NCBI GenBank assembly: GCA_022843585.1
Contig: JALHNJ010000001.1
Location: forward strand, 620,001 to 684,000
DNA from: Chitinophagaceae bacterium
GTDB lineage: Bacteria > Bacteroidota > Bacteroidia > Chitinophagales > Chitinophagaceae
Direction: 5' to 3'
Length of the DNA stretch: 64,000 bases
Shown here: positions 19,241-24,422 of the stretch, piece by piece
Layout: each line of letters begins with the position of its first letter
Numbering within the stretch: position 1 is the first letter of the stretch
Notes under the pieces: model-generated
What the model was told of the DNA's origin: nothing
Databases searched by the model: none
The model's input: only the letters and a program-made list of their open reading frames with translations
Program-made: the position numbers and the translations under genes

Positions 19241-19310
19241 AATAAAATGTATTATGTGAAAGGTACAAAAATTTCCTCCTAATTTTATTGTGTATATAAA
19301 TTGAGTGACT

Positions 19311-20228
19311 ATGGATTTTGGACGGGTATCAGCAAGTGAATTAGACAGTATTGATTTCTCTTTGCCAAAAGAACCTGCTTCTAATAAAGCAATATTAAAG
19401 GATAGGCCAGCAAAAGATGCTAAAGTATACATTGGCTGTGCCAAATGGGGCAGGCCTGAATGGGTAGGGAAAATCTATCCTCCCAAAACAAAGGAGAAAG
19501 ATTTTTTACAACACTATGTTCAACATTACAACTCCATTGAGTTAAATGCTACACATTACAGAATTTGGGGCGAAGCCGGGATAAGCAAGTGGGCAGAGAA
19601 GGCCAAAGGAATGGATTTTAAATTCTGCCCAAAAATGTACCAGGGTGTTACACATCGTGGAAGTTTAGCAGGAAAAGAATTTATAACCAGTGAATTTTTC
19701 CGGGGTATTGTAGCTTTTAAAGAACATCTTGGACCCATCTTCGTACAGGTAAGTGATAGTTTTTCTCCTAAGCGGAAAGATGAGTTGTTTACTTATTTGA
19801 AATCACTACCTATCGATTTACAATTCTTCTTGGAGGTTCGTCATCCTGACTGGTTTGCTAAAGAAAATATCAGGGAAGAAATGTTCGATTTTCTAAAAAC
19901 GAATAATATAGGTGCCGTAATTACCGACACTGCTGGCAGAAGAGATTGTGCTCACATGCACCTGACGATTCCCAAAACTTTTATCCGCTATGTAGGAAAC
20001 AGCTTGCATTCTTCTGATTATACAAGAATTGACGCATGGATAAAAAGAATGAAGCAGTGGTTAGATACAGGGATGGAAGAGCTTTATTTTTTTATGCATA
20101 TGCATGATGAAGCTACCTCGCCAGAACTCACCGTTTATTTAGTAGATAAGATTAATAAGGAATGTGGGTTGAATTTAGGAAAACCTGGCTTTTGGGATGA
20201 TGAAGATCCTCAGAGTGTTTTATTTTAA
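19311..20228 (+). CDS. DUF72 domain-containing protein
   Basis: A 305-residue protein of the DUF72 TIM-barrel family: YIGCAKWGRPEWVG, then SIELNATHYR, FKFCPKMYQ and FLEVRHPDWF. The family has no proven reaction. A GTG two codons upstream (19305) is an alternative start; the ATG is preferred. It ends one base before the umuC stop on the other strand, so the two are convergent with no gap. The N-terminal 40 residues are not part of the conserved domain. Confidence 0.85.
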   Translation: MDFGRVSASELDSIDFSLPKEPASNKAILKDRPAKDAKVYIGCAKWGRPEWVGKIYPPKTKEKDFLQHYVQHYNSIELNATHYRIWGEAGISKWAEKAKGMDFKFCPKMYQGVTHRGSLAGKEFITSEFFRGIVAFKEHLGPIFVQVSDSFSPKRKDELFTYLKSLPIDLQFFLEVRHPDWFAKENIREEMFDFLKTNNIGAVITDTAGRRDCAHMHLTIPKTFIRYVGNSLHSSDYTRIDAWIKRMKQWLDTGMEELYFFMHMHDEATSPELTVYLVDKINKECGLNLGKPGFWDDEDPQSVLF

Positions 20229-21509
20229 TCAACTCACTTCAAATAATTCATCCCATTGTGTTGTATAACGGTCGCTGATAAAATTCCGCTGCATTTTCCA
20301 GTTTCTGGTGGTGCCGACTGCAGCAAATTTCAACACATCATTCCGCTGGCTGAAATTTACATTGTCGATCATATCCATCAGCTTGCGTTCGCAATTTTTT
20401 GTGTCGGATAAAAACAAATTGCCTTGTATCGAATTATCCGGAACAATACCGCTCAGCATTACACCGGCTTTTTTATAAGAAGTTCCGTTTTTAAAGAGCT
20501 TATCTGCCAATGCAATAGCAGGTTTTATTAATTCATTAGTATAGGAAGTAGCAGTGGGTAGTGTAACAGAGTCGCCATGGGTAGCTCCTCTAAAATCTAC
20601 ATTATGATCTTCTCCTTTTGCAACTACAAACACACTAATAACTCTTGCCGCACTGTGTTGCCGCCTCAGCTTTTCCGCTGCTCTTGCTGTATAGGTTGCA
20701 ACCGCTTCTTTTATTGAATCAATATCTCCAACAGGGCTGCCAAACATTCTTGTGGTGGCAATCATTTTTTTACTCACCAGCTCTTCTTCCATGTCTTTTG
20801 ATGTAACACCTTTTAGCTCCCGAAGCAAGCGGCTACCTACAACTCCACCGAGATGTATTTTCCCAAATTCTTCGCTCATCTTACTTAATTGCAGCGCATC
20901 ATAAATGCAAAAATTCTCTTTTAATTTTTTTGCATATTGTCTGCCAATGCCCCATATATCGTCAATTGCTGTTTGTTTTAGTGCAGCATTAATTTCTTCT
21001 TCATTTGCTAATACCATTACGCCATTGTATTTGGATATCTGCTTTTTTGATAAGCGATTAGCTACTTTGGCCAGCACTTTTGTGGGGGCGACACCCACTG
21101 ACACTTTAATGCCTGTCCATAATTCAACAGTATCTTTTATTTCTTTGGCAATTTTTTTCAGTTCATTTTTCGAAAAAATGCTCAGATCTAAAAAGGCTTC
21201 ATCTACCGAATACACTTCTACATTCTTTTTGCCAAGCATTATCCGCAATGTTTCCATCACCCGCCAGCTCAAGTCGCCATATAAATTATAATTGGAAGAG
21301 AAAACAGCAACATCATTTTTTTCTACCACTGTTTTTGCCAAAAAATAAGGACCTGCCATTTCTACTCCCAGCTTTTTTGCTTCATTGCTGCGGGAAACAA
21401 TACACCCATCGTTGTTGCTTAGTACAACAACAGGTTTATTTTCCAGGTGCGGTTTGAATAAACGTTCACAAGAACAATAAAAATTATTACAGTCAACAAT
21501 TGCTTTCAT
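20229..21509 (-). CDS. umuC: DNA polymerase V catalytic subunit UmuC
   Basis: A 426-residue Y-family translesion polymerase. The metal ligands are Asp6 in AIVDCNNFY and Asp103/Glu104 in SVDEAFLDL, all intact. The helix-hairpin-helix region carries DDIWGIGRQ near 183. A sliding-clamp-binding motif QGNLF lies at 362-366. The umuD gene ends 14 bases upstream, so the pair is one operon. Since its UmuD partner appears unable to self-cleave, activation of this polymerase may not follow the E. coli scheme. Confidence 0.95.
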   Translation of the reverse strand: MKAIVDCNNFYCSCERLFKPHLENKPVVVLSNNDGCIVSRSNEAKKLGVEMAGPYFLAKTVVEKNDVAVFSSNYNLYGDLSWRVMETLRIMLGKKNVEVYSVDEAFLDLSIFSKNELKKIAKEIKDTVELWTGIKVSVGVAPTKVLAKVANRLSKKQISKYNGVMVLANEEEINAALKQTAIDDIWGIGRQYAKKLKENFCIYDALQLSKMSEEFGKIHLGGVVGSRLLRELKGVTSKDMEEELVSKKMIATTRMFGSPVGDIDSIKEAVATYTARAAEKLRRQHSAARVISVFVVAKGEDHNVDFRGATHGDSVTLPTATSYTNELIKPAIALADKLFKNGTSYKKAGVMLSGIVPDNSIQGNLFLSDTKNCERKLMDMIDNVNFSQRNDVLKFAAVGTTRNWKMQRNFISDRYTTQWDELFEVS

Positions 21510-21523
21510 CTGTCCATGTTATT

Positions 21524-21955
21524 TCATAATGGATGTATAACATACATTACCACTCCCCACACAGAAAAATTGCTAAACTCTGCCAGGTTTATATTCTTAT
21601 ACCGGCTGTTTTCCGGTATTAAAAAAGCTGAAGAAAAATTTTTATGAAACCGTCTCACCAATAATTCTCCATTCAGAATGGCAACGATTACTTTTCCATT
21701 CACCAGCTTAACAGAACGATCTACAATTAATATGTCCCCATCAAAAATGCCAGCCTCCTTCATCGCATCGCCTTTCATGCGAAAGAAATAAGTGGCAGGT
21801 TTATTTTTGACAAGCTGTTCATTCAGGTCAATGCCCCGTTCCATATAATCATCTGCAGCAGCACCAAAGCCGGTAGCGTTGGCGGTATTTACTTCCTGTT
21901 GGGTAAATTGTTTTGAGCCCTTATAAGCACTGCCGTAAAATTCATCTCCTTCCAT
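21524..21955 (-). CDS. umuD: UmuD/LexA-family S24 protein with lost Ser-Lys dyad
   Basis: A 143-residue UmuD homologue collinear with E. coli UmuD. The catalytic serine of GDSM is replaced: the text reads KGDAMKEAGI, Ala64 encoded by GCG. The catalytic lysine is also replaced: NGELLVRRF has Arg101 where E. coli has Lys97. The scissile pair at the E. coli Cys24-Gly25 position is Thr28-Gly29. The rest of the fold (IFDGDILIVDRS, then SVWGVVMYVI) is well kept. RecA-stimulated self-cleavage therefore looks impossible, yet the gene is intact and heads umuC. It may act as a constitutive or purely structural subunit. Confidence 0.9.
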   Translation of the reverse strand: MEGDEFYGSAYKGSKQFTQQEVNTANATGFGAAADDYMERGIDLNEQLVKNKPATYFFRMKGDAMKEAGIFDGDILIVDRSVKLVNGKVIVAILNGELLVRRFHKNFSSAFLIPENSRYKNINLAEFSNFSVWGVVMYVIHPL

Positions 21956-21992: not shown

Positions 21993-22023
21993 TTTGTAAA
22001 AACTAAATAATTTAGTAAGTTTA
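21993..22023 (+). promoter_or_regulatory. promoter with palindromic operator, umuD / 2H phosphoesterase divergent region
   Basis: TTTG at 21993-21996 and TAAGTTTA at 22016-22023 are 19 bases apart, one mismatch from consensus, pointing toward the 2H phosphoesterase gene. A perfect 15-base palindrome, ACTAAATAATTTAGT (22002-22016), fills most of the spacer and touches the first base of the -7 element. It lies 46 bases upstream of umuD. A repressor there would block the rightward promoter and could also control umuDC. Which protein binds is unknown. Confidence 0.5.
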
Positions 22024-22064: not shown

Positions 22065-22685
22065 ATGGGTATGGAAACGATTATCAACACAATTCCCGGT
22101 TACCGGGTTTACGAGTATTTATTGGTACTCAGTCCGCATGAAGAATTATGGAACCGCATCATGAAAGTGAAAGAAAATTTTGCAGAACAGTACAAATCTG
22201 ATCATGCAAGATGGGGGAAACCACATGTCACCTTGGCAAATTTTCTCCAATATGAAATGAAGGAAGACCGAATTGTCAATCACTTAAAAAGAATTGCCAT
22301 GGGTTATCCTCCGTTCAAAGTTGAGTTAAAAGATTTCGGAAGCTTTCCATCACATACTATATATATTAATGTTACCAGCAAATTGCCGATTCAAAATTTG
22401 ATTAAAGAAATACGACTGGATGGTAACAGGCTGATGAAACTGAATGATGATAACAAACCGCATTTCATAATGGAACCGCATCTCACCATTGCGAGAAAAC
22501 TAAAACCCTGGCAATATGAAAAGGCCTGGCTGGAGTACAGTAACAGTCATTTCACCGGCCGGTTCATTGCCGATACTATGACCTTGTTGAAAAGACCTGC
22601 GGGTGAAATGAAATATCATATTGCTAAAAAATTTGAGTTTCAAAACCTACCAGTAGCAACAAGGCAGGGTGAATTATTTGGATAA
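22065..22685 (+). CDS. 2'-5' RNA ligase-like 2H phosphoesterase
   Basis: A 206-residue 2H-superfamily protein with the two catalytic HxT motifs, HVTL at 54-57 and HLTI at 139-142, about 85 residues apart as usual. Bacterial members open or form 2',5'-phosphodiester bonds or cleave cyclic nucleotides; the substrate here is unknown. It is divergent from umuDC across a region with a promoter and a palindrome, which suggests joint stress control. A GxxExxY nuclease cassette begins just behind its stop. Confidence 0.8.
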   Translation: MGMETIINTIPGYRVYEYLLVLSPHEELWNRIMKVKENFAEQYKSDHARWGKPHVTLANFLQYEMKEDRIVNHLKRIAMGYPPFKVELKDFGSFPSHTIYINVTSKLPIQNLIKEIRLDGNRLMKLNDDNKPHFIMEPHLTIARKLKPWQYEKAWLEYSNSHFTGRFIADTMTLLKRPAGEMKYHIAKKFEFQNLPVATRQGELFG

Positions 22686-22689
22686 TAAG

Positions 22690-22728
22690 TTGAACCACAG
22701 AGACACTATGACACAGAGTAGCACAGAG
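22690..22728 (+). repeat. left inverted repeat of the GxxExxY cassette
   Basis: A 39-base stretch beginning TTGAACCACAGAGACAC. It matches the reverse complement of the element at 23229-23270 at 32 of 39 positions. It starts 5 bases after the previous gene's stop and contains the ATG (22708) of the nuclease gene, so the first residues (MTQSSTE) are encoded by the repeat itself. Confidence 0.7.
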
Positions 22729-23121
22729 AAAATACATAAGCCACTAACAGAAAGAGAAAGATGGCTTACCTCGCAAGTAATGGATATAGCAATTACAATT
22801 CATAAATTTTTGGGCCCAGGTTTGCTGGAAGGTATATATGAGAAATGTTTTTGTTATGAGTTGGCAAAAAGAAATATTCGGTATGTAGTTCAAAAGAATG
22901 TAGAACTAATTTATGATAAGCTGGTAATTAGTGATGGCTTGCGAATTGATATATTAGTTGATGATTTAATAATTGTTGAGTTGAAGGCACAGGATATTTA
23001 TCATCCGGTTTGGGATGCGCAACTTTTAAGTTACTTGCGACTGACTCAAAAGAGACTTGGATATGTCCTTAACTTTCATGTGCCATTAATGAAAGATGGC
23101 GTTAAAAGAATGATTCTTTAA
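22708..23121 (+). CDS. GxxExxY protein, PD-(D/E)XK nuclease-like
   Basis: A 137-residue protein with the defining motif GLLEGIY at 38-44 and a nuclease-type core, RIDILVDD (Asp81) followed by VELKAQD (Glu91, Lys93), which fits the D...ExK pattern of the PD-(D/E)XK superfamily. Function in this family is not established. An open frame extends upstream to 22669, but the ATG at 22708 is preferred because the earlier codons overlap the previous gene. The gene is bracketed by inverted repeats on both sides, suggesting a small self-contained mobile cassette. Confidence 0.8.
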   Translation: MTQSSTEKIHKPLTERERWLTSQVMDIAITIHKFLGPGLLEGIYEKCFCYELAKRNIRYVVQKNVELIYDKLVISDGLRIDILVDDLIIVELKAQDIYHPVWDAQLLSYLRLTQKRLGYVLNFHVPLMKDGVKRMIL

Positions 23122-23168
23122 TTGCCTGGAAGGCAATTACTCAGTGTTTCTGTATTTAATAAGTTAAC

Positions 23169-23270
23169 TACTCTGTGCTTCCCCCTGTCGCTGTGTCTAT
23201 GTGGTTCAAACTATTCTGTGATTAATCATACTCTGTGCTTCTCCCTGTCGCTGTGTCTCCGTGGTTCAAA
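23169..23270 (-). repeat. two tandem right-hand repeats of the GxxExxY cassette
   Basis: Two 42-base copies, at 23169-23210 and 23229-23270, share TACTCTGTGCTTC, CCCTGTCGCTGTGTCT and GTGGTTCAAA and differ at about three positions. Their period is exactly 60 bases. They are inverted relative to the left repeat at 22690-22728. No protein-coding gene is supported in 23122-23309, although a short frame is open there. Confidence 0.75.
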
Positions 23271-23309
23271 ATACTCCAAGCGTCAATTCACTCCCAAATA
23301 TTTTTTATC

Positions 23310-24422
23310 ATGAACAATGATTTACAACAAGACCATTTTAAAGTAATACCTAAAAAGGAAGACCCAGAAAATCCAACTTATCTCGCAGGCCGTGGGGCAC
23401 AGATAAATACAAAAAATCGGTTTCAAAAAAACGAAGTTACAAGAGAACATATTGAAGGCATTGATGATTGGGAAGAATCAAATGTGCCAACCATCTACAT
23501 GGAACAGGAATCGAAGACGATCGTCAACAAAGTAGAAAGTAAAGATGTAGGTATGAGCTATAGCATGAACCCCTATGCCGGTTGCGAGCATGGCTGCATC
23601 TATTGCTATGCAAGAAATGTACATGAATACTGGGGCTACAGTGCCGGTCTTGATTTTGAACGAAAAATAATCATCAAGAAAAATGCACCACAACTGCTCC
23701 GTAAGTTCTTAATGCATCCAAAGTGGGATGGTACGCCTATCATGCTAAGCGGTAATACGGATTGTTATCAACCTGCCGAACAAAAGTATCGCCTGACAAG
23801 AGGCTTGCTGGAAGTATGTAATGAGTTTAATCAACCCGTTGGCATACTTACCAAAAACTCCTGGATACTAAAAGACAAAGATGTATTACAGGAAATGGCA
23901 AAGAAAAAATTAGTATCAGCCATGGTTTCTATTACATCTTTTAATGAAGACCTGCGCAGAATAATGGAACCAAGAACTACTACGGCCAAACAAAAGCTGA
24001 AAGTAATAAACGAATTAAGTAGTGCGGGGGTAAGAATGGGCATTATGATGGGGCCCATGATACCGGGATTGAATGAACATGAAATGCAACGCATCATGAA
24101 AGCGGCGGCAGATAACGGAGCCACCTTCACCGCCTACACTTTTATTCGCTTAAATGGTGCCATCAAGTTTCTATTTCATGATTGGCTATATAAAAATTTT
24201 CCTGATAGGGCCGATAAGGTTTGGCATTTGATAGAACAAAGTCATGATGGAAAAGTAAATGATACCCGCTGGGGTGTACGTATGCGGGGCGAAGGAAGTA
24301 TTGCGGAGATGGTAGCACAGCAATATAAAAAATACGGTAAGCTGTATAAAATGAATGCGGAAGAATGGAGTTTAGATACTTCCATCTTCCGCAGACCAGG
24401 TTCTCAGGGAAAATTATTCTGA
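23310..24422 (+). CDS. PA0069-family radical SAM protein
   Basis: A 370-residue radical SAM protein starting at MNNDLQQDHF; the frame upstream to 23235 runs into the repeat and is discarded. The iron-sulfur motif is CEHGCIYCYA with Cys92, Cys96 and Cys99 (CxxxCxxC), preceded by MSYSMNPYAG. MLSGNTDCYQPAEQKY and PMIPGLNEHEM are further family signatures. The family is related to spore-photoproduct lyase but its reaction is unknown. Its last 9 bases overlap the convergent META-domain gene. Confidence 0.9.
   Translation: MNNDLQQDHFKVIPKKEDPENPTYLAGRGAQINTKNRFQKNEVTREHIEGIDDWEESNVPTIYMEQESKTIVNKVESKDVGMSYSMNPYAGCEHGCIYCYARNVHEYWGYSAGLDFERKIIIKKNAPQLLRKFLMHPKWDGTPIMLSGNTDCYQPAEQKYRLTRGLLEVCNEFNQPVGILTKNSWILKDKDVLQEMAKKKLVSAMVSITSFNEDLRRIMEPRTTTAKQKLKVINELSSAGVRMGIMMGPMIPGLNEHEMQRIMKAAADNGATFTAYTFIRLNGAIKFLFHDWLYKNFPDRADKVWHLIEQSHDGKVNDTRWGVRMRGEGSIAEMVAQQYKKYGKLYKMNAEEWSLDTSIFRRPGSQGKLF

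What the first reader, a model, noticed from the sequence alone, without database searches (positions are those of the whole stretch)
21524..21955. UmuD that has lost both the catalytic serine and lysine
Seen: collinear alignment with E. coli UmuD puts Ala64 (GCG codon) at the Ser60 position in GDSM, Arg101 at the Lys97 position in GEFTVK, and Thr28-Gly29 at the cleaved Cys24-Gly25. Known: Ser60 and Lys97 form the dyad needed for RecA-stimulated self-cleavage to UmuD'. Inference: this subunit cannot cleave itself, so polymerase V here would be always on, controlled only by transcription, or dependent on another protease. The rest of the protein is intact and the UmuC active site is kept, which argues against simple decay.
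Basis: partly seen in the sequence, partly recalled or inferred. Interest (0 to 1): 0.7.

Follow-up and report, generated by a model that had tools for sequence, protein, structure and literature searches.

The report
UmuD that no longer cuts itself
In a large group of environmental bacteria, the helper protein of an error-prone DNA-repair polymerase has lost the self-cutting step that activates it in E. coli, yet it is carefully preserved with a rebuilt tail, so the polymerase is probably controlled only by switching its genes on.

Summary
Confirmed, and larger than reported. The minus-strand umuD at 21524-21955 has Ala64, Arg101 and Thr28-Gly29 where E. coli UmuD has Ser60, Lys97 and Cys24-Gly25. 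It is not a lone mutation: in 118 clade members read from genomes of the same family, Lys is Arg in 118 and Ser is Ala in 107 (Ser 9, Thr 1, Cys 1). Of 59 other-family genomes with a match, the 45 read are all Ser/Lys. Named members include Lacibacter, Terrimonas and Sediminibacterium (Chitinophagaceae). Substrate features changed too: P1 Ala to Thr, hydrophobic P3 to Asn/Asp, and the hydrophobic-Pro-hydrophobic arm motif (E. coli FPLF) in 0 of 92. A new conserved arm motif replaces it. The gene is under purifying selection (omega 0.10), keeps an exact SOS operator in 115 of 118, and usually sits beside umuC. The window's genome has no other UmuD; its other S24 protein is a phage-type repressor that keeps Ser, Lys and an Ala-Gly site. 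Best reading: a Pol V without the UmuD self-cleavage gate, controlled by SOS transcription, with uncleaved UmuD as the working form. Loss of self-cleavage is well supported; activity of the uncleaved form is inferred, untested.

The parts
21524..21955 (-). umuD, 143 aa, S24-fold small subunit of Pol V without the Ser-Lys dyad
   Evidence: NCBIfam NF007621 132.2 bits against a cut-off of 110
21872..21955 (-). codons 1-28: N-terminal arm with the clade's own motif YxG[ST]Kx[FY]xQ and TANAT before Gly29
   Evidence: conservation by column, arm comparison, alignment A1
21869..21874 (-). Thr28-Gly29, the position of the Cys24-Gly25 bond cleaved in E. coli
21764..21766 (-). Ala64 (GCG) at the Ser60 position
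21653..21655 (-). Arg101 (AGA) at the Lys97 position
20229..21509 (-). umuC, 426 aa, 14 bp behind umuD; Asp/Glu at E. coli positions 101/102 kept
22003..22015 (.). exact SOS operator CTAAATAATTTAG (CTAA-N5-TTAG), 47 bp upstream of umuD and 49 bp upstream of the divergent LigT-like gene
   Evidence: motif from PMC8565304 (passages)
22065..22685 (+). divergent 2'-5' RNA ligase-like (LigT) gene that shares the operator; neighbour, role in the system unknown
   Evidence: PF13563 8.5e-24; on the opposite strand in 58 of 80 named loci

Best explanation
This is the small subunit of a DNA polymerase V that has lost the UmuD self-cleavage gate, in a clade spread through one family of bacteria (Chitinophagaceae by its named members). 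DNA damage induces umuDC through the Bacteroidota SOS repressor, a phage-type HTH-S24 protein that keeps Ser, Lys and an Ala-Gly site, acting at the CTAA-N5-TTAG operator. The UmuD made cannot cut itself: the nucleophile (Ser to Ala), the base (Lys to Arg) and the P1 and P3 residues have changed. The uncleaved protein, with a rebuilt arm, works directly with its co-inherited UmuC, roughly as UmuD' does in E. coli. Shown from sequence: these changes, their conservation in a clade, purifying selection, the operator, and a co-inherited UmuC with its catalytic residues. Inferred: no cleavage in the cell, an arm that is free rather than docked, an active polymerase with uncleaved UmuD, and the arm as a contact with UmuC.
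For: Arg for Lys in 118 of 118 clade members and Ala for Ser in 107 of 118; 79 of 80 named loci Ala/Arg and 1 Ser/Arg (overlapping set). One clade of 92 rows, SH-aLRT 100, on a tree built without the two dyad columns. P1 Thr 84 of 92 against Ala 55 of 56 in Ser/Lys rows; P3 Asn/Asp 89 of 92 against Ile/Val/Leu 55 of 56; [hydrophobic]-Pro-[hydrophobic] arm motif 0 of 92 against 46 of 56. omega 0.10, arm 0.18. Exact SOS operator in 90 of 92 and 25 of 26 and 79 of 79 named loci. umuC directly behind in 76 of 92; Asp101/Glu102 in 65 of 65 clade UmuCs examined, which form one clade, SH-aLRT 99. The genome has two S24 proteins only: this one and the HTH-S24 repressor with two operators of its own. 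100 of 116 clade genomes have no further UmuD-like match at E 1e-5.
Against: No protein or expression data. In E. coli a non-cleavable arm-shortened form (UmuD 8 S60A) gives greatly reduced UV mutagenesis, and S60A forms sensitise cells to UV (PMC5342242, passages). The arm is not rebuilt at every site: the position of E. coli F18 (P7) is still Val/Ile in 90 of 92 and that of T14 (P11) Thr/Ser in 66 of 92, so docking may survive in part. Nine of 118 members keep Ser. The arm is unresolved in the model. 16 of 92 have umuC not directly behind, and in four of those genomes no close UmuC was found.
Confidence: 0.68

Rival explanations
1. The uncleavable UmuD keeps UmuC in the non-mutagenic, checkpoint-like UmuD2C form known from full-length E. 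coli UmuD, so the module slows replication or protects forks rather than doing mutagenic bypass.
For: Full-length E. coli UmuD is the less mutagenic form; non-cleavable UmuD 8 S60A gives little UV mutagenesis (PMC5342242, passages). The arm is kept and conserved rather than removed.
Against: UmuC keeps its catalytic Asp/Glu in 65 of 65, not needed for a pure checkpoint; the arm differs strongly from the canonical one.
Confidence: 0.15
2. Another protease cuts this UmuD in trans (the HTH-S24 repressor, or Clp or Lon), so a UmuD'-like form is still made.
For: E. coli UmuD S60A arms can be cut in trans by an active UmuD (PMC5342242, passage). Gly29 is invariant in the clade and TANAT-G is well conserved. 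Three of the genomes' second copies that were read are Ser/Lys UmuDs (L095, L104, L111).
Against: P1 and P3 are no longer what S24 proteins of this class cut; 100 of 116 clade genomes, the window's included, have no second UmuD-like match.
Confidence: 0.12
3. The protein is a decaying remnant or has a role unrelated to UmuC.
For: In 16 of 92 loci umuC is not directly behind, and four of those genomes have no close UmuC; two such members (L093, L098) have lost the whole arm motif.
Against: omega 0.10, an exact operator in 115 of 118, umuC directly behind in 76 of 92 and a 58-64% identical UmuC elsewhere in 12 of the other 16 genomes.
Confidence: 0.03
4. Self-cleavage survives with a substitute catalytic pair.
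For: Ser81 (0.99) and Lys52 (0.98) are nearly invariant in the clade; nine members keep Ser beside Arg.
Against: Ser81 is also common (0.89) in Ser/Lys relatives, so it is no replacement; P1 and P3 changed at the same time. Geometry was not testable: the tools gave no coordinates.
Confidence: 0.02

Closest known systems
E. coli UmuD/UmuD' (Pol V small subunit)
   Same: Descent, S24 fold (Foldseek 8gmt rank 2, 1umu rank 3), place before umuC, SOS-type induction
   Different: No Ser-Lys dyad, no Cys/Ala-Gly site, different N-terminal arm
HumD of phage P1 (recalled as a natural UmuD'-like protein) and the UmuD genes found here that start at the UmuD' end
   Same: UmuD kin that need no self-cleavage
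   Different: Those lack the arm; this clade keeps and conserves one. HumD model NF051876 scores 67.2 against a cut-off of 120
UmuDAb of Acinetobacter
   Same: UmuD kin changed in its regulation (PMC8565304 and PMC11332147: passage and abstract start seen)
   Different: UmuDAb has a DNA-binding N-terminus and still cuts itself
HTH-S24 SOS repressor of Bacteroidota (PMC8565304)
   Same: S24 domain; the probable regulator of this gene, L002 in the same genome
   Different: Keeps Ser, Lys and an Ala-Gly site and has an HTH domain
Phage 186 repressor domain and Streptococcus SipA
   Same: Weak Foldseek matches of the wider fold (E 0.04 and 0.08); recalled as fold members without the usual active site
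   Different: Not polymerase subunits

Membership tests
UmuD, Pol V small subunit (by descent) | Sequence and fold of UmuD | tested here: met
   NF007621 132.2 bits, cut-off 110; PF00717; phmmer 1umu 2.3e-22; Foldseek 8gmt, 1umu
UmuD, Pol V small subunit (by descent) | Encoded with umuC | tested here: met
   umuC 14 bp behind; directly behind in 76 of 92 clade loci
UmuD, Pol V small subunit (by descent) | SOS operator upstream | tested here: met
   CTAAATAATTTAG 47 bp upstream
UmuD, Pol V small subunit (by descent) | Supports translesion synthesis with UmuC and RecA | not testable with these tools
   needs biochemistry or genetics
Autoproteolytic S24 peptidase | Ser-Lys dyad | tested here: not met
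   Ala64/Arg101; Arg in 118 of 118 clade members
Autoproteolytic S24 peptidase | Ala-Gly or Cys-Gly cleavage site | tested here: not met
   Thr28-Gly29 in the window; P1 Thr in 84 of 92 clade rows
Autoproteolytic S24 peptidase | RecA-stimulated self-cleavage | not testable with these tools
   needs purified protein
HumD | Score above the model's cut-off; no arm | tested here: not met
   67.2 bits against 120; arm of 28 residues present
UmuDAb-type repressor | N-terminal DNA-binding domain | tested here: not met
   only PF00717 found; 28 residues before Gly29

The most novel reading that the evidence does not exclude
A bacterial family runs a Pol V whose small subunit is active without proteolysis: the cleavable pro-arm became a permanent polymerase-binding arm, leaving transcription as the only switch. 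In other UmuD lineages of the same family the gate was lost by another route, by starting the gene at the UmuD' end, again with Lys turned to Arg.
Probability: 0.45. Interest if true: 0.75.

Novelty: new variant of a known kind. Interest (0 to 1): 0.62.

Why it matters
RecA-driven self-cleavage of UmuD is the textbook gate on mutagenic repair by Pol V. Bacteria that keep the polymerase genes but have dropped the gate are a natural test of what the gate is for, and of whether uncleaved UmuD can be an active subunit. The automatic name 'autoproteolytic subunit' (NF007621) is misleading for these proteins. Because non-cleavable E. coli UmuD supports little mutagenesis (PMC5342242, passages), the changed arm is a concrete candidate for compensation.

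Tried and rejected
Lone mutation or sequencing error: rejected. A second umuD that supplies the protease: none in this genome. Viral origin: no relative confirmed in viral contigs (that scan used two peptide patterns of this clade only). Phage and plasmid records: 9 and 42 matches, all under 60% identical, none covering 80% of the query. The Synechocystis plasmid UmuD, 49.5% identical, is Ser/Lys. Decay: rejected by omega. Loss of SOS control: rejected.

Lost arm against lost UmuC: of four clade members without a close UmuC, two (L093, L098) differ at all 7 conserved arm sites, the other two at 1 of 7 each; the permutation value of 5e-05 rests on those two rows, whose bodies have diverged too (11 and 15 of 47 sites), so I give it little weight. 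Structure model: the body matches UmuD and LexA, the arm is unresolved, and no canonical control was modelled. Literature: no paper on a naturally dyad-less UmuD turned up in the searches and 75 of an open-access library; subscription journals are mostly missing, so this is weak evidence.

Rows left out or altered: L293 reads Thr/Arg but has a run of undetermined bases inside the gene and is not in the 118. L032 was cut to its last 143 residues for alignment and holds undetermined letters. L001, L003, L113 and L114 were dropped as repeats. omega used 158 of 172 sequences. The UmuC alignment used 65 of 76 clade UmuCs. Of 80 named loci 21 have umuD DNA identical to an unnamed-genome locus, so the sets overlap and are not added. 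Of the matches above E 1e-45 only those were read; of 59 other-family genomes with a match, 14 were not read. Second copies of six clade genomes (G045, G051, G058, G138, G164, G223) were not read.

Full report
What is there. The gene lies on the minus strand at 21524-21955 and encodes 143 aa; umuC (20229-21509, minus) follows after 14 bp. Pfam finds Peptidase_S24 (1.3e-25), NCBIfam the UmuD model NF007621 above its cut-off (132.2 against 110 bits), and phmmer the E. coli UmuD' and UmuD structures. In an alignment with K-12 UmuD fetched from NC_000913, Thr28-Gly29, Ala64 and Arg101 stand at Cys24-Gly25, Ser60 and Lys97.

It is a clade. A search of 244 genomes of the same family found matches in 149, 116 of them at E 1e-45 or better. 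I read the residues in all 116 and in two diverged members, L093 and L098: 92 rows. Arg stands at the Lys position in 118 of 118; the Ser position is Ala in 107, Ser in 9, Thr in 1 and Cys in 1. On a maximum-likelihood tree of 156 rows, built without the two dyad columns, the 92 rows form one clade with SH-aLRT 100 on a stem of 1.54; it is a quick tree without bootstraps, and its program warns of few columns for so many rows. Parsimony needs at least 4 changes between Lys and not-Lys and 8 between Ser and not-Ser. Outside the clade, 65 of 73 loci read are Ser/Lys (56 of 63, 9 of 10, L293 set aside); these include 45 of 45 read from other families, out of 59 other-family genomes with a match. 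A scan of named genomes kept the 80 best of 287 relatives: 79 Ala/Arg, 1 Ser/Arg. Titles that name a genus give Lacibacter, Terrimonas, Sediminibacterium, Segetibacter and Flavitalea; the first three were checked to be Chitinophagaceae. Two MAGs are titled Sphingobacterium thalpophilum and one Sphingomonadales; whether those titles are right was not checked. That the window itself is from Chitinophagaceae is my inference from these relatives.

The substrate side changed as well. Counting back from the cleavage-site Gly: P1 is Ala in 55 of 56 Ser/Lys rows but Thr in 84 of 92 clade rows; P3 is Ile, Val or Leu in 55 of 56 but Asn or Asp in 89 of 92; a hydrophobic-Pro-hydrophobic motif (FPLF in E. 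coli) is found in the last 16 arm residues of 46 of 56 and 0 of 92. The clade has its own arm motif, with Tyr11, Gly13, Lys15 and Gln19 at 93-97%. In E. coli the variant T14A L17A F18A has arms that bind the body weakly and is called a UmuD' mimic, while non-cleavable UmuD 8 S60A gives greatly reduced UV mutagenesis (PMC5342242, passages). In the clade the L17 position is polar (0 of 92 hydrophobic), but the F18 position stays Val/Ile in 90 of 92 and the T14 position Thr/Ser in 66 of 92. So the idea that the arm has left the protease groove is an inference with evidence both ways. The AlphaFold model has a confident body (blocks from residue 61 on average 83-93) and an unresolved arm.

It is maintained. 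Nei-Gojobori omega over 26 disjoint pairs is 0.10 (arm 0.18, body 0.085). umuC lies directly behind in 76 of 92 loci. Of the other 16 genomes, 12 hold a UmuC 58-64% identical to the window's elsewhere, two only a 43-44% type, one a 29% match and one none. E. coli UmuC positions 101/102 are Asp/Glu in 65 of 65 clade UmuCs examined and position 6 is Asp in 64 with one gap; those 65 form one clade, SH-aLRT 99.

Control. PMC8565304 (passages, not the whole text) reports that Bacteroidetes lack LexA homologues and use HTH-S24 repressors, one group binding CTAA-N5-TTAG, Chitinophagaceae among them, with umuDC as a target; the passages I saw do not mention a missing dyad in UmuD. The window has an exact copy, CTAAATAATTTAG, at 22003-22015, 47 bp before umuD. 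The genome has 40 such sites in 4.49 Mb, against 129 for the reversed control pattern, so the motif is not over-abundant. Of the first 15 site loci, others stand before a gene I read as recA, twice before the HTH-S24 gene, and before one I read as a DNA polymerase III alpha homologue (those two labels are my reading of the protein). The exact operator lies within 250 bp upstream of umuD in 90 of 92 and 25 of 26 clade members and in 79 of 79 named loci with enough upstream DNA, against 4 of 11 Ser/Lys umuDs of the same family and 6 of 56 Ser/Lys umuDs overall. The HTH-S24 protein keeps GDSM, a Lys in YKR and an Ala-Ala-Gly stretch. So the transcriptional switch seems to have kept its protease while the post-translational switch lost its own.

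A parallel in the same family. Seven UmuD genes outside the clade start at the UmuD' end (L097, L105, L107, L108, L109, L110; L283), each with a stop in frame upstream. All seven have Arg for Lys; five keep Ser. L106, with a short arm, is Ser/Arg. Six of the seven sit in genomes that also hold the clade's UmuD (handles); the window's genome has no such gene.

How it most likely works. Damage, through RecA, inactivates the HTH-S24 repressor; umuDC is made; uncleaved UmuD joins UmuC. AlphaFold studies by others put one UmuD' arm into the UmuC cleft near the active site (PMC11791011 and PMC12926913, passages); I propose that the rebuilt arm serves this purpose untrimmed. Loss of self-cleavage is very likely from sequence; the active-uncleaved model is the best of several, at about 0.68. 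The main rival is a permanent checkpoint form.

Limits. No protein or expression data; a quick tree; root and order of losses not tested; the place of the arm unknown.

Noticed in passing
L097, L105, L107, L108, L109, L110 (first codons as) and L283: umuD genes that start at the UmuD' end (MGFPSP, MAFPSP, MLFPSP), all with Arg for Lys97; six of seven lie in genomes that also hold the window's type of UmuD.
   Followed up: partly
window 22065-24422 (+): A LigT/2'-5' RNA ligase-like gene, a PD-(D/E)XK protein and a PA0069-family radical SAM protein run divergently from the shared SOS operator. The LigT-like gene is on the opposite strand in 58 of 80 named loci and the radical SAM gene in 54 of 80, so they may be part of the SOS response here.
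   Followed up: partly
L002:1174-1962, own genome: HTH-S24 protein with two CTAA-N5-TTAG sites 6 and 29 bp before its start: the likely SOS repressor, probably autoregulated.
   Followed up: yes
window 20229-21509 (-): Clade UmuCs share residues that differ from those of Ser/Lys systems, for example Cys12 (64 of 65) next to the recalled steric-gate position, Met255 (63 of 65) and Arg389 (62 of 65); possible counterparts of the changed arm.
   Followed up: no
L043, L045, L054, L074, L084 and others: In 16 of 92 clade loci umuD is not directly followed by umuC; two tandem LigT-like genes stand divergently in several of them, and umuC is elsewhere in 12 of the 16 genomes.
   Followed up: partly
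window 19305-20228 (+): A DUF72 gene convergent with umuC, matched in 36 of 80 named loci.
   Followed up: no
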